Origin: Parapristionchus giblindavisi | Lineage: Eukaryota > Nematoda > Chromadorea > Rhabditida > Diplogasteridae | Direction of reading: 5' to 3' | Assembly: GCA_943737045.1 (NCBI GenBank) | Contig: CALSFV010000210.1 | Span: forward strand, 1,799,001 to 1,863,000 | Length of the DNA stretch: 64,000 nt | Shown: positions 1 through 5,339 of the stretch, in pieces | Numbering within the stretch: position 1 is the stretch's first letter | Layout: every line of letters starts with the position of its first letter | Translations under genes and position numbers: made by a program | Notes under the pieces: model-generated | Told to the model about the DNA's origin: nothing | What the model saw: the letters and a program-made list of their open reading frames with translations, nothing else | Databases searched by the model: none

Positions 1-873
1 CTACTTGAATATTCGCCGATCAGAATTACGCTCTAGCGCACTCTCTAGCGCACTCTCTCACAGTCTCTAGATGCAAATTGAGCAATGATGTGTCTATGCA
101 AATGACAATGATGACTTGGCAGTTCTTTCTTCATTCTCTCCTCTCATTCAACTTCATGACACGTATGTCACTTCTCGCTGCTATTTCAAACTTTATTATC
201 ATTATATCGTGTACAGCTCATGCTTCTATGTCATTCACACGTTTACCTATTCTTCTCTCACCATCTATTGCTCGTCAAGTCCGAATATATCGTGTATCTC
301 TCACGAATTGTCCATATATTCTGTTTGTCTATAACCTATCAACTCTAGTCTTTCGCTCGTTGATGTCCTTTCCATTCCTTTTCCTCTCTCGATGTTCGTC
401 CTCTTAGCCGTCGTTCATTGATGTCCTTTTCGTTCCTTTTTCGCTCTTCATCGATGCCCTATTTGTTCCGTCATCACTCCTCTTCTTGATGTCGTCTTCG
501 CTCTGCATTCCTATCATCCTTGTATCCCTTTGATAGTCTTGCCCCCTTTGTTCTTTCGCTATTCATATCATTATTGTGCGAATCGTTCATTCCCCGTTTG
601 CTCCCTATTTCATTATTGTTGTTTAATTACCCAAGTTTGAGGTGTAAGTCGAGATGTCCTAAGGCAAGTCCAAAACAGGACGTCCTAATCTATACATCTG
701 CGGCGTCACTATCATCAAGCTTGTATTGGTTGTAAACCTAACTTTTATTGCTTATATCTTTTTGTATAACTAGTCTCCTGAAACGATAAAATTGTATAAT
801 CAATTAGAAATCGTATTTGCTAGTATACATCTAAGCCACACACCGAAAAGTCCCTCGAGACTTATTCGCTATA
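1..873 (+). repeat. 5' LTR, left end outside the window
   Basis: Identical to 3921-4793 apart from the missing first 17 bases. It ends CTATA immediately before the primer-binding site. LTR ends TGTAG and CTATA form a short imperfect inverted repeat. It contains the SL1-like sequence at 620-641. Small ORFs inside it recur in the other LTR simply because the LTRs are identical; none looks like a gene. Confidence 0.92.
620..641 (+). other. SL1 spliced-leader-like sequence in the 5' LTR
   Basis: Bases 621-641 match 21 of the 22 bases of nematode SL1 (core TTACCCAAGTTTGAG); only the first base differs (T for G). The next bases are GTGTAAG, so a splice-donor GT sits exactly where SL RNA is cut. 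Downstream, 654-660 can pair with 677-683 (one G-U pair). I see no convincing Sm site at the spacing of SL RNA; the nearest pyrimidine-rich candidate is around 739-748. It may be an SL RNA-derived piece, a cis splice leader of the element, or the start of its transcript. Confidence 0.85.
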
Positions 874-890
874 TGGTGCAAAGGCTAAAC
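874..890 (+). promoter_or_regulatory. Primer-binding site of the retrotransposon
   Basis: TGGTGCAAAGGC starts at the base after the LTR end. TGG is complementary to the CCA end of a tRNA; the priming tRNA would end GCCTTTGCACCA. I cannot name the tRNA from this window. Confidence 0.7.
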
Positions 891-1190: not shown

Positions 1191-3560
1191 ATGACTTTCA
1201 CAACCGAATACGGTGCGATCTATGCAGAATTACATGAAGCTCTTTCATTCATTGTAGCCAAATGTTCAGAGATGAGAAATCTCATAGACGATATCGATCA
1301 CTGCTATTCTATTGATTACTTTAATGGTCTATCCTTTCAATATCGATCACTATCATCCAGTTTAGAATTGAAATTATCCTATTACAGACTCCACCACGAC
1401 GAGATTTCTCTTTTGATTACTGAAAGTAACTCTCCAGATGAGTCTGAATATTTACATCAATATCAGAAGTCTCGTGATCCAACCAATACAACAACACGAT
1501 CATCGTTATCGGTCAGTTCACTTGTAGAATCCCTGATATGTGATGCTACATTAGCTATTGACAGTACCCAAAGCTATCTCCTCTCTAAAATAGAACGAAC
1601 TAGATCGTCTACTAGTATGACTAGACGACGTCGTCGTAGGAAAATCGATACGGCTCGACCTGATACTACTCTTAGATCTATCGATAATGTCATTCCAACA
1701 CCTTTGCCAATAACGTCTATAGCATCAACTAGTCCAATCGATAATAGCTTTCCCACACCTATGCCTAGACAGTCTATCAATACATCATCAAATATTCAAT
1801 CAACGAAACCATCGATTGATTCAGATAATTCTTATCGTTTGAACAAACCCATAGATACTCCTAATGATGATATCACCTCACATATTAATCATGTCTCTAT
1901 TCATTCCGATAGTGAACAGTTAATAGATGAACTATCGATTGACTCAACTAGCTTGTTAAATGATAATGATGTCATTACTACAAAGGAAATATCCTTAGCT
2001 ATCGAACCAATATCTCAACTAGAAACTGTGGCAGAGAATCAAGTGAGAGAACATGAAGATGCTATTGCTGATTCTCCTTTATCTGATACCATTCAATATA
2101 ATTATAATGAATATGCAGTCAAGTATTGTCTACGAGACAATAATCTCTCTGATAATTATAATAATTATGCAAAGGCATACAAATGTCTAGAGCACAATTT
2201 GACTAAACTATCCAAGATTCAAGACTATCGATCGTTTTATGATCAATTGATAAGAGACCAACAATCCATAGGTCAAATTGAAGAACTATCAAGATATCGA
2301 TTTCATCGTCTTATTATCCATTACTTAGCTGATCAATCAGTTCTTCCTCCAGATAAGATAACTATACCATTATGGATTAATTATCTATATTCATCATCAT
2401 CTCACGATAATATCATAGACTATCGATTCACTGTAACTTCATTAGATATTAATCAATCACCATATACTCTCATCAAGACTATTCAATATTATTTGAATAA
2501 GGCTAAAGCAGATCATGGTAATGACCCGACAATATCTCAAATAGACCATTCTAGTTATATCGATAAATTGTTGTTGTCAGCTGATGATACAGATACTTCA
2601 TTACATACTAAGAGCAAACTGATCTTAGGACAGATTCCTAGTCTACCATGGAATACAACTAATGATATTTTATCGATTAAGTTTCCGAAGCTATCTCAAC
2701 CATCTCATGATACCAAGAGATTAGTCTCTTCAATTATATCCTCATCATGTTATCCATTACAAATCATTTCTCCTCTTGTTCTCAATACATGCTTATCCTT
2801 AAGATTCGTTTGGGAGCCTAGTATTGATTGGGACTTGAAACTATTCGATCATTCTCATATTGCTTGGATAAAGCTAATGGATGGTACAAATTCTGCTGTA
2901 CTGTACATTCCTCGTAAAGCTAGACTATCTATATGTAAATCATCCACATCATTAAATTCGAGAAAAGCATTACAAGATAAGAAAGAATCACGTCCTGTTA
3001 TTTCTTCTCCAATCATTAAATCTCCATCTATTCAAGAATCTTCAAATAAGTCATATCACTTACTTATTTCGTTAAAAATATCAATTAGTACAAGTAATCC
3101 ACATTCTTATGATAGTACTACAACTCCTAATCATGATATGGGAGAAGTAGTGAAACAGAAGACGAGTGTTATGATGGCCTGGTCTAAGGTGAAGTCGTAT
3201 AAAGCCACTTTAAGACTATCTGATTGGACTACTCTTTCTGTAGTCATCATTAGTGCCGTCCTCTATCATATAATCTCTTCTGTCATTACATCTAACCTTT
3301 CTTTATTATATAATCATCAACTCTTACTCTATTCAAGTACCATTCTACTGCATTCTCATCTCTACTATCTTATCCTCTATCTCTACTATTCAATACAGCT
3401 AGATAACTTCCAATTACATACTATCAAGTTATCACACTATTCTTGTAGTGGGGAGGAAGTCTACTCCTATGAAGGATTATCCTTTACCATACCATACTAT
3501 AAGTGTCTTATTCGATTTCAAAGTTCTACCGTATACTATTCAAGATTATTCATAAAGTAA
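1191..3560 (+). pseudogene. Broken BEL/Pao gag/pol-derived ORF, 789 codons
   Basis: The ORF is open for 789 codons, far shorter than a complete BEL/Pao gag-pol. Residues 1-300 are Ser/Thr/Ile/Asp-rich with an Arg run at 144-150 and may be a gag remnant. Residues 318-395 match the start of BEL/Pao reverse transcriptase (NLSDNYNNYAKAYKCLEHNL, then DQLIRDQQSIGQIEEL and a YLADQSVLPP block). Residues 411-475 match the palm, but the expected YxDD reads YIDK (456-459), and the motif A region before it is missing. Residues 480-560 match the downstream connection block (PWNTTNDIL, KRLVSSII, IISPLVLN, WEPSIDWD). No protease, RNase H or integrase is visible. Residues 676-735 are strongly hydrophobic and may be a membrane or env remnant. 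It cannot encode an active transcriptase. Confidence 0.78.
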
Positions 3561-3893: not shown

Positions 3894-3903
3894 GGGGCGG
3901 GAG
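3894..3903 (+). promoter_or_regulatory. Polypurine tract
   Basis: GGGGCGGGAG lies directly before the TG that begins the 3' LTR, the position of the plus-strand primer in LTR elements. One C interrupts it. Confidence 0.75.
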
Positions 3904-4793
3904 TGTAGCGATTATGATCACTACTTGAATATTCGCCGATCAGAATTACGCTCTAGCGCACTCTCTAGCGCACTCTCTCACAGTCTCTAGATGCAAATTG
4001 AGCAATGATGTGTCTATGCAAATGACAATGATGACTTGGCAGTTCTTTCTTCATTCTCTCCTCTCATTCAACTTCATGACACGTATGTCACTTCTCGCTG
4101 CTATTTCAAACTTTATTATCATTATATCGTGTACAGCTCATGCTTCTATGTCATTCACACGTTTACCTATTCTTCTCTCACCATCTATTGCTCGTCAAGT
4201 CCGAATATATCGTGTATCTCTCACGAATTGTCCATATATTCTGTTTGTCTATAACCTATCAACTCTAGTCTTTCGCTCGTTGATGTCCTTTCCATTCCTT
4301 TTCCTCTCTCGATGTTCGTCCTCTTAGCCGTCGTTCATTGATGTCCTTTTCGTTCCTTTTTCGCTCTTCATCGATGCCCTATTTGTTCCGTCATCACTCC
4401 TCTTCTTGATGTCGTCTTCGCTCTGCATTCCTATCATCCTTGTATCCCTTTGATAGTCTTGCCCCCTTTGTTCTTTCGCTATTCATATCATTATTGTGCG
4501 AATCGTTCATTCCCCGTTTGCTCCCTATTTCATTATTGTTGTTTAATTACCCAAGTTTGAGGTGTAAGTCGAGATGTCCTAAGGCAAGTCCAAAACAGGA
4601 CGTCCTAATCTATACATCTGCGGCGTCACTATCATCAAGCTTGTATTGGTTGTAAACCTAACTTTTATTGCTTATATCTTTTTGTATAACTAGTCTCCTG
4701 AAACGATAAAATTGTATAATCAATTAGAAATCGTATTTGCTAGTATACATCTAAGCCACACACCGAAAAGTCCCTCGAGACTTATTCGCTATA
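3904..4793 (+). repeat. 3' LTR, complete, 890 bp
   Basis: It begins TGTAGCG after the polypurine tract and ends CTATA. Bases 3921-4793 repeat 1-873, and the boundary after 4793 is where the two copies diverge. Confidence 0.92.
4540..4561 (+). other. SL1 spliced-leader-like sequence in the 3' LTR
   Basis: Second copy of the 620-641 sequence, with the same T for G at the first position and the same GTGTAAG following. Confidence 0.85.
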
Positions 4794-5208
4794 CTTACCG
4801 TATGCCGCGCTATCCGTATCCATCTCGCTCCATCGTCCCCATGGTCCCTCCTCTCTCTTACGGTACCGTAACCCGCTTTGACCGTTCGTGGGGTACTCCC
4901 GGTTGCGGGCAATTGATACGGCTCACCGGGTTTACTCTATGTACGCCTGGGTGTGGTGTCGCGGATAGATTAGTGTTGTATTTCGTGTTTTTTTTTGCAT
5001 GAGTATCATGTATTAGCGCTCTTATCCTCTACCGTAGATATCTTCCTTTTTGCCCTTCGTCACATCTCTTCATCACATCCCCCAGTTTGTTCCATTTTCT
5101 AAGTTACTTTTTGCTCTTTGCACTTCATTCTATCGTTCTTTGTCCTTATTTCCTATATAATTGCAAAATATTTTTCAGAAGCTGCAACCATTCTTGATCG
5201 ATTGAGAT
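4794..5208. other. Intergenic, nothing recognised
   Basis: Host flank of the retrotransposon. A 96-codon reading frame starting in the LTR runs to about 5000, but it is low in similarity to anything I know and its start lies in the LTR, so I do not call it a gene. Confidence 0.5.
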
Positions 5209-5339
5209 TATCCATGAACGTTCGCAAACCGTTTGCCGGCAAATTTGACGTCACAAGCAGGAGGATCTCTGGCGAACGCCTCCGCCTATGCTTGTGACGT
5301 CACGTTTGCCAGCAAAGGGTTTGCCAACGTTCATGGATA
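5209..5339. repeat. 131-bp hairpin, possible TA-flanked MITE
   Basis: Arms 5209-5259 and 5289-5339 are inverted copies with a few mismatches around a 29-base loop. The outer sequence is TA followed by TCCATGAACG on both ends, as expected for an element inserted at TA. Each arm contains the palindrome TGACGTCA. No coding capacity. Confidence 0.8.

What the first reader, a model, noticed from the sequence alone, without database searches (positions are those of the whole stretch)
620..641. SL1 spliced-leader sequence embedded in a retrotransposon LTR, with its splice donor
21 of 22 SL1 bases in both LTRs (also 4540-4561) cannot be chance. The following GT shows it is not the remnant of an already trans-spliced RNA, which would lack the donor. 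Inference: if element transcripts start here they would carry SL1 without trans-splicing, might gain the SL cap and its translation benefits, or use the LTR leader as a cis-splice exon. Trans-splicing of SL1 onto element RNA would then also regenerate, rather than destroy, the R-region homology needed for strand transfer. This is a possible retroelement mimicry of the trans-splicing system.
Basis: partly seen in the sequence, partly recalled or inferred. Interest (0 to 1): 0.9.

Follow-up and report, generated by a model that had tools for sequence, protein, structure and literature searches.

The report
Host spliced leader inside retrotransposon LTRs
In this worm genome many BEL/Pao retrotransposons carry an exact 20-base stretch of the nematode spliced leader SL1 at one fixed place in their long terminal repeats, and different repeat halves are joined exactly there, so the leader likely marks the start of the element's RNA and would act as the landing spot when new DNA strands jump between RNAs.

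Summary
Confirmed, and wider than reported. SL1 (21 of 22 bases) sits in both LTRs of a non-autonomous BEL/Pao element. Genome-wide, 455 exact 20-nt SL1 cores were counted (one class unsearched; SL RNA genes included); 16 of 45 Pao-peptidase genes are flanked on both sides by same-strand SL1, while 14 of 28 fully judged ones have none. In an SL1-blind set of related LTRs, SL1 plus GT is the longest invariant block (23 nt; 0 of 100,000 shuffles).

New here: U3 and R-U5 modules swap at SL1. Six elements have LTRs with different R-U5; U3 is identical in the five where it was read. Five were checked for 5-bp target duplications and all match (one weakly), so reverse transcription is the simplest cause: RNA begins with SL1 and strong-stop cDNA jumps there. 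SL1 base 1 is hypervariable, as at a cDNA end.

The splice-donor reading is weak: GT is kept (54 of 60 contexts), but no fitting acceptor was seen. Initiation versus trans-splicing needs RNA 5' ends. SL1 beside Pao elements is in print for Brugia malayi (PMC7181701), read as captured leaders; seven searches of an open library showed no report of LTR module swapping at SL1.

The parts
1..873 (+). 5' LTR of the element (first 17 bases lie before the window)
   Evidence: identical to 3904-4793 where both are in the window
620..641 (+). SL1 in the 5' LTR (21 of 22; nt 1 is T); predicted start of R
   Evidence: longest invariant block of related LTRs
642..643 (+). GT directly after SL1; kept in 54 of 60 contexts, donor use not supported
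785..790 (+). GATAAA, a poly(A)-signal-like hexamer 143 nt after SL1 (role inferred)
874..885 (+). TGGTGCAAAGGC, presumed primer binding site directly after the 5' LTR (by eye)
1191..3560 (+). 789-aa ORF with a partial Pao peptidase domain (residues 508-578)
3894..3903 (+). GGGGCGGGAG, presumed polypurine tract (by eye)
3904..4793 (+). 3' LTR, 890 bp, TGTAGCGA...TTCGCTATA
4540..4561 (+). SL1 in the 3' LTR (21 of 22)
4562..4563 (+). GT directly after the 3' LTR's SL1
4794..4798 (+). CTTAC, 3' copy of the target site duplication

Best explanation
Many BEL/Pao LTRs of this genome carry SL1 between U3 and R-U5, and SL1 likely is the first 21-22 nt of the element RNA, so that strong-stop cDNA would end in SL1 and could jump to the SL1 near the 3' end of any RNA that has one. 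Shown by sequence: the fixed position, the exact conservation, module swaps at SL1, and discordant LTR pairs with matching target duplications. Inferred: that RNA starts at SL1 (initiation is slightly preferred over splicing because nt 1 is mostly T, not the G of SL1); that the jump uses SL1; that in discordant elements the recipient's own 5' end was copied as well, which would leave a native 5' LTR and a foreign R-U5 in the 3' LTR. Weakest step, inferred: why SL1 stays equal to the host leader. The element would likely gain RNA that passes as a trans-spliced mRNA; an internal start element, as recalled for Ascaris SL RNA genes, is the alternative.
For: SL1 nt 2-22 plus GT is the longest invariant run (23 columns) of an SL1-blind set. 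Same place in families with U3 of about 117, 296, 506 and 584-638 nt. Sixteen pairs of contexts share U3 but not R-U5 and two the reverse; L022/L023 are identical for 588 nt up to SL1, then 50% and 30% alike. Five of 34 tagged LTR pairs are discordant, plus C11; target duplications match in 5 of 5 checked. C7's 3' R-U5 is identical over 150 nt to that of C205, which carries a Pao peptidase in a 2062-aa frame. In C205's LTR U3 is shortened to about 117 nt and ends at SL1. Nt 1 differs in 12 of 31 pairs with near-identical upstream sequence, nt 2 in none, any other position in at most 6.
Against: No RNA data. 24 of 64 left-high and 9 of 11 right-high change points lie outside the SL1 block, and the invariant block itself draws change points. 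Rows and pairs are related, so counts overstate independence. The conserved GT is unexplained. No SL-RNA-type promoter likeness upstream. 14 of 28 judged Pao-peptidase hits have no exact SL1 core within 10 kb, so SL1 is not needed by all BEL/Pao elements. C84's supposed donor C149 matches only at the start (75 of 147 ungapped).
Confidence: 0.55

Rival explanations
1. Trans-splicing refresh: each element RNA receives SL1 from the host SL RNA, perhaps at an acceptor formed by the end of the encoded SL1 (TTTGAG|G); strong-stop cDNA then rewrites SL1 in both LTRs every cycle, so SL1 needs no selection to stay exact.
For: SL1-headed RNAs are reverse-transcribed in this genome: cytochrome c retrocopy L030 and repeats that begin at SL1 next to differing DNA. 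Nt 1 repeatedly reads G, the host base, on otherwise TG backgrounds. Brugia authors read SL1 at Pao elements as added leaders (PMC7181701, passages).
Against: TG outnumbers GG 38 to 13 of 60 contexts, though copied leaders should give GG. The needed acceptor would be poor (inference). GT retention is not predicted. In C. elegans the full-length 8-kb Cer1 RNA, a Ty3-type element, was not SL1 trans-spliced (PMC3315495, passages).
Confidence: 0.25
2. Passive relic plus DNA-level exchange: an ancestral LTR captured SL1 once; later gene conversion between LTRs used SL1 as one of few shared blocks.
For: Capture of trans-spliced RNA does occur here (L030). Some change points lie outside SL1.
Against: SL1 plus GT stays invariant while flanks diverge. 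In C7 and C319 the differing segment runs from SL1 to a different LTR terminus beside unique DNA, which conversion would need further homology to achieve. Matching target duplications speak against crossing-over.
Confidence: 0.12
3. Cis-splice leader: the encoded SL1 is a first exon whose GT is spliced to internal acceptors, giving SL1-headed subgenomic mRNAs.
For: GT in 54 of 60 contexts, GC in 3. C. elegans Cer1 does make a spliced 2.4-kb mRNA (PMC3315495, passages).
Against: No wider donor consensus across families; acceptor scan: none in four of six elements, one weak match 540 nt before the ORF (L023) and one inside the coding region (L003) in the other two. It does not explain the module swaps.
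Confidence: 0.06

Closest known systems
SL1 sequences beside PAO retrotransposons in Brugia malayi (PMC7181701; passages read)
   Same: 120 SL1 copies outside SL RNA arrays, 60 within 1 kb of PAO elements, sometimes two on the same strand flanking one element.
   Different: There read as leaders added to expressed elements and integrated. In the passages seen there is nothing on LTR position, the retained GT, conservation against flanks, or module swapping.
SL-containing transposable elements in Schistosoma mansoni (PMC5832876; passages read)
   Same: Six exonic SL sequences merged with transposable elements; trans-spliced, retro-transcribed elements suggested.
   Different: Few cases and an assembly artefact not excluded by the authors; no LTR role.
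Cer1 of C. elegans (PMC3315495; passages read)
   Same: Nematode LTR retrotransposon with an SL1 trans-spliced mRNA.
   Different: Ty3/Gypsy type; SL1 comes from the host by trans-splicing onto the 2.4-kb spliced RNA only; no SL1 in the LTR is mentioned in the passages seen.
Terminal hairpins of non-trans-spliced C. elegans mRNAs (PMC9984361; passages read)
   Same: RNA 5' ends said to mimic the SL structure; several LTR families here can pair the SL1 3' half with a downstream arm.
   Different: There the hairpin is the gene's own sequence, not SL1; the window's family lacks the pairing (p 0.79).
Intermolecular strand transfer in retroviruses and LTR retrotransposons (recalled)
   Same: Strong-stop cDNA jumping between RNAs at the R region.
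   Different: Here the shared R start is a host leader common to otherwise different families.

Membership tests
BEL/Pao LTR retrotransposon | Pao-type peptidase/polyprotein between LTRs | tested here: met
   Window ORF matches PF05380 partially, E 8.8e-07; 16 of 45 strong genomic hits are flanked on both sides by SL1.
BEL/Pao LTR retrotransposon | Two LTRs with a short target site duplication | tested here: met
   Identical LTRs, TSD CTTAC.
BEL/Pao LTR retrotransposon | Own reverse transcriptase and integrase (autonomous member) | tested here: not met
   The window ORF gives only the partial peptidase at E up to 1: a non-autonomous derivative.
SL1 RNA gene | Full-length SL RNA (Rfam RF00198) | tested here: not met
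   L005 and L014 match RF00198 1-103 at 36.1 and 34.4 bits (below gathering); LTR loci L022 and L031 do not match at E <= 5.
Retrocopy of a trans-spliced mRNA | SL1 at the 5' edge of the copy, followed directly by the mRNA | tested here: not met
   SL1 is internal to the LTR and followed by GT; L030 shows the true pattern.
R region with strand-transfer role | Element RNA 5' end at this base | not testable with these tools
   No RNA data; only indirect marks.
Cis-splice leader exon | GT with donor context and a usable acceptor | tested here: inconclusive
   GT kept; no wider donor consensus; no fitting acceptor in a crude scan of six elements.

The most novel reading that the evidence does not exclude
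A host spliced leader serves as a universal R region: every SL1-bearing retroelement RNA shares the same 5' end, copied or renewed from the host's own SL1, so that all families form one pool whose U3 and R-U5 segments reassort at SL1 during reverse transcription. Non-autonomous elements thereby borrow R-U5 ends from autonomous ones, and every element RNA passes as a trans-spliced host mRNA.
Probability: 0.3. Interest if true: 0.92.

Novelty: new variant of a known kind. Interest (0 to 1): 0.77.

Why it matters
SL1 beside Pao elements had been explained as capture of leaders. Here SL1 is the most conserved block of the LTRs compared, sits at one place in families whose flanks differ, and is a junction between LTR halves. 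If true, a host RNA-processing sequence is part of a retrotransposon's replication cycle, the shuffling of LTR halves between families is explained, and mimicry of trans-spliced mRNA by a transposon becomes directly testable.

Tried and rejected
Promoter shared with SL RNA genes: 100 nt upstream of two SL RNA genes against ten LTRs stayed within shuffles in 20 comparisons (fewest shuffles reaching the score: 9 of 200); the two SL RNA genes score 21 against each other.

ACC...GGU hairpin as the reason for the retained GGT: predicted pairing is near 0 in 10 of the 13 LTR families folded other than the window group and its kin, where it ranges from 0.33 to 0.86; not a general explanation.

A host SL variant with one more T (as in C205's LTRs): 5 copies and no array, so not a host leader.

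R hairpin (SL1 3' half with a downstream CTCGGACTTG-like arm): p under 0.05 in 6 of 19 representatives (D01, D04, D10, D12, D15, D17), not in the other 13, which include six of the window's group (window p 0.79), nor in five controls; real SL1 halves beat shuffled halves (2 of 500 as good). The test window was chosen after seeing the folds, and arms may share ancestry: exploratory.

Homologues of the 789-aa ORF: of 7994 scored candidates none at E <= 0.001. Rfam at gathering found no hammerhead or SL RNA in 15 loci; 'hammerhead-type' rests on a recalled motif. The species was not identified; that it is a nematode rests on SL1 and its SL RNA genes.

Literature searches behind 'not found': (open-licence PMC library only).

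Full report
Observation. SL1 with one mismatch (T for G at nt 1) lies at 620-641 and 4540-4561, the only matches with up to 3 mismatches in the window; shuffles gave none. The element around it has 890-bp LTRs (TGTAGCGA...TTCGCTATA), a PBS-like TGGTGCAAAGGC directly after the 5' LTR, a purine-rich tract before the 3' LTR and the TSD CTTAC. Its one long ORF (789 aa) holds a partial Pao peptidase domain and no other Pfam match at E up to 1, so it is read as a non-autonomous BEL/Pao derivative. Both LTRs are identical over the 750 nt compared, which suggests a recent insertion (inference).

Not a one-off. In the window's own 251-Mb genome SL1 with up to 2 mismatches occurs 711 times. The exact 20-nt core TTTAATTACCCAAGTTTGAG is followed by GTG 96 times, GTA[AGT] 117, GT[CT] 208, GG-non-T 18 and non-G 16, so GT in 421 of 455. 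The class GTAC, which holds an SL RNA gene array, was not searched, and the 455 include other SL RNA genes and other retroelements. I took the 45 strongest of 66 Pao-peptidase hits: 16 are flanked on both sides by a same-strand core within 10 kb and 3 on one side. On contigs where the listing was complete but for GTAC, 14 of 28 have a core and 14 have none; on the opposite strand 3 of 28 have one. SL1-LTRs are thus a large part, not all, of this genome's Pao elements.

Conservation. A similarity search with window 540-760, itself holding SL1 but not requiring it, gave 40 scored hits at 84-100% identity; 30 were fetched and 15 were unique. All 30 hold the exact core. The longest invariant run is SL1 nt 2-22 plus GT, 23 columns once L047 (a 2-nt insertion) is dropped; the next run is 8; 0 of 100,000 column shuffles reach 23. 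Rows are related, so this measures constraint only roughly.

Position. SL1 stands between U3 and R-U5 in several families: U3 about 117 nt (C205), 296 (L002/L003), 506 (L012/L013), 584-588 (L022/L023, L027/L028) and about 597-638 (window type), with outliers such as L004 (474) and L058 (736); PBS-like TGGTGC follows 233-391 nt after SL1 in the seven loci where it was found. AATAAA-like hexamers lie 125-150 nt after SL1 in two family groups and were not found in L002, L003, L012, L013.

Module swapping. Among 60 unique contexts, 16 pairs share U3 (at least 97% over 108 nt) but not R-U5 (under 70% over 80 nt), 2 pairs the reverse, and 7 share both. The break is abrupt. L022/L023 have 588 identical nt before the core, then 50% and 30%, recovering to 67-90% further on. 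L051/L060 are 100% back to -400 and 95% in the next 100 nt, then 60% in the first 10 nt after SL1 and 47-85% further on. L038/L114 and L046/L095 are 100% over the 150 nt read, then 44-68%. L111/L114 are the mirror image: unrelated before, 98-100% after. With unanchored alignments, 40 of 64 left-high change points fall in the SL1 block; 24 lie elsewhere (peaks near +38 and +56), and only 2 of 11 right-high ones are in it. The invariant block itself draws change points to its end, so the long-range comparisons carry more weight.

Discordant LTR pairs. The 100 listed places form 34 non-overlapping two-LTR pairs; 5 have different sequence after SL1 (C7, C33, C84, C209, C319), and C11 is a sixth. 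U3 is identical between the two LTRs over 588 nt (C11), 200 (C7), 150 (C209), 147 (C319) and 93 (C33); for C84 the sequence before SL1 of the first LTR was not fetched. Target duplications were checked in five and match in five: GTTAG (C7), GAAAG (C319), ACATC (C209), AGATC (C11) and TTATT (C84, in a microsatellite and weak); C33 was not checked. So these look like single insertions whose discordance was most simply made before integration. In C7 and C319 the 3' LTR has another terminus (ATTACA instead of CTATA). C7's 3' R-U5 is identical over 150 nt to that of C205, which carries a Pao peptidase in a 2062-aa frame. C84's 3' tag GTAACAG recurs at C149 near a Pao-peptidase hit, but only the start agrees (75 of 147 ungapped), so that donor is not established. 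A native 5' LTR with a foreign 3' R-U5 is what follows if strong-stop cDNA made on a second RNA jumps to the 3' SL1 of the recipient while the recipient's own 5' end is copied later (inference). Of the 17 pairs compared on both sides, none breaks on the U3 side at SL1; L058/L059 differ in U3 beyond 170 nt.

First base. In 31 pairs with near-identical upstream sequence, nt 1 differs in 12, nt 2 in none, and no other upstream position in more than 6 (46 mismatches over 148 positions). Ten of the twelve are T/G, two are C/T. The pairs overlap in membership. This is what a cDNA end would leave: a G copied from a trans-spliced leader or from a cap. Because TG outnumbers GG (38 to 13 of 60, one GG being the cytochrome c copy), I lean to initiation at the encoded SL1, without being able to decide.

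GT. It follows SL1 in 54 of 60 contexts, GC in 3 (the 60 include L030). There is no further donor consensus across families, and the acceptor scan found no fitting site in six elements: no match in four, TTTAAG 540 nt before the ORF in L023, TTTAAAG inside the coding region in L003. Its role is open.

Other SL1 carriers. L030 is an intronless cytochrome c frame (PF00034, E 1.3e-07) with SL1 directly before a short leader and GG, not GT, after it: a retrocopy of a trans-spliced mRNA. Several repeats with a hammerhead-like motif (recalled; not confirmed by Rfam) begin at SL1 next to differing DNA. SL1-headed RNAs thus do get reverse-transcribed here, which makes capture by trans-splicing a plausible origin of the LTR copies. 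Two loci with full-length matches to the SL1 RNA model, below its gathering score, are the likely SL RNA genes.

Prior work. In Brugia malayi 120 SL1 copies outside SL RNA arrays were reported, 60 within 1 kb of PAO elements, and read as leaders added to expressed elements (PMC7181701, passages). Schistosoma mansoni has six SL sequences merged with transposable elements (PMC5832876, passages). The seven searches named in Tried and rejected listed no report of SL1 as an LTR module junction; most subscription journals are not held. The internal promoter role of SL in Ascaris SL RNA genes is recalled, not read.

Verdict. The finding is real and understated. Best reading: SL1 is the start of R and the strand-transfer handle of many BEL/Pao elements in this genome. 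Shown by sequence: position, constraint, junctions, discordant pairs with matching duplications. Inferred: RNA start, jump mechanism, benefit.

Noticed in passing
window 13041-63982, - strand: Tandem array of about 0.97-kb units, each with a 5S rRNA gene and a U5 snRNA gene (53 5S and 53 U5 matches).
   Followed up: no
L030 (G000:C15:1218043): Intronless cytochrome c frame with a complete SL1 at its 5' end: a retrocopy of a trans-spliced mRNA.
   Followed up: partly
L019, L020, L021, L024, L025, L026, L029, L120, L130: Repeats with a CTGATGA...GAAAC hammerhead-like motif (recalled) directly after SL1; L019 and L020 are palindromic around SL1. Rfam gave no hammerhead match at gathering.
   Followed up: partly
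L092-L128, R-U5 modules: In several LTR families the SL1 3' half can pair with a downstream CTCGGACTTG-like arm; exploratory statistics. The window family lacks it.
   Followed up: partly
window 654-662 and kin: A start-Ser-stop mini-ORF (ATGTCCTAA) 12 nt after SL1 recurs in several R-U5 variants of the window's group.
   Followed up: no
G000:C205:2072832 and 2081900: Both LTRs of a 9-kb Pao element have a U3 of only about 117 nt that ends at SL1, and SL1 has one extra T.
   Followed up: partly
G000:C33:317822 and 317945 (L138): SL1 and its surroundings occur twice, 123 bp apart, in one LTR.
   Followed up: no
window 5209-5339: Inverted repeat with 51-nt arms, 90% complementary, 29 nt apart; looks like a small palindromic transposon.
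   Followed up: no
G000:C145:26449-82876: Large array of exact SL1 copies spaced about 1.16-1.17 kb, presumably SL RNA genes.
   Followed up: no
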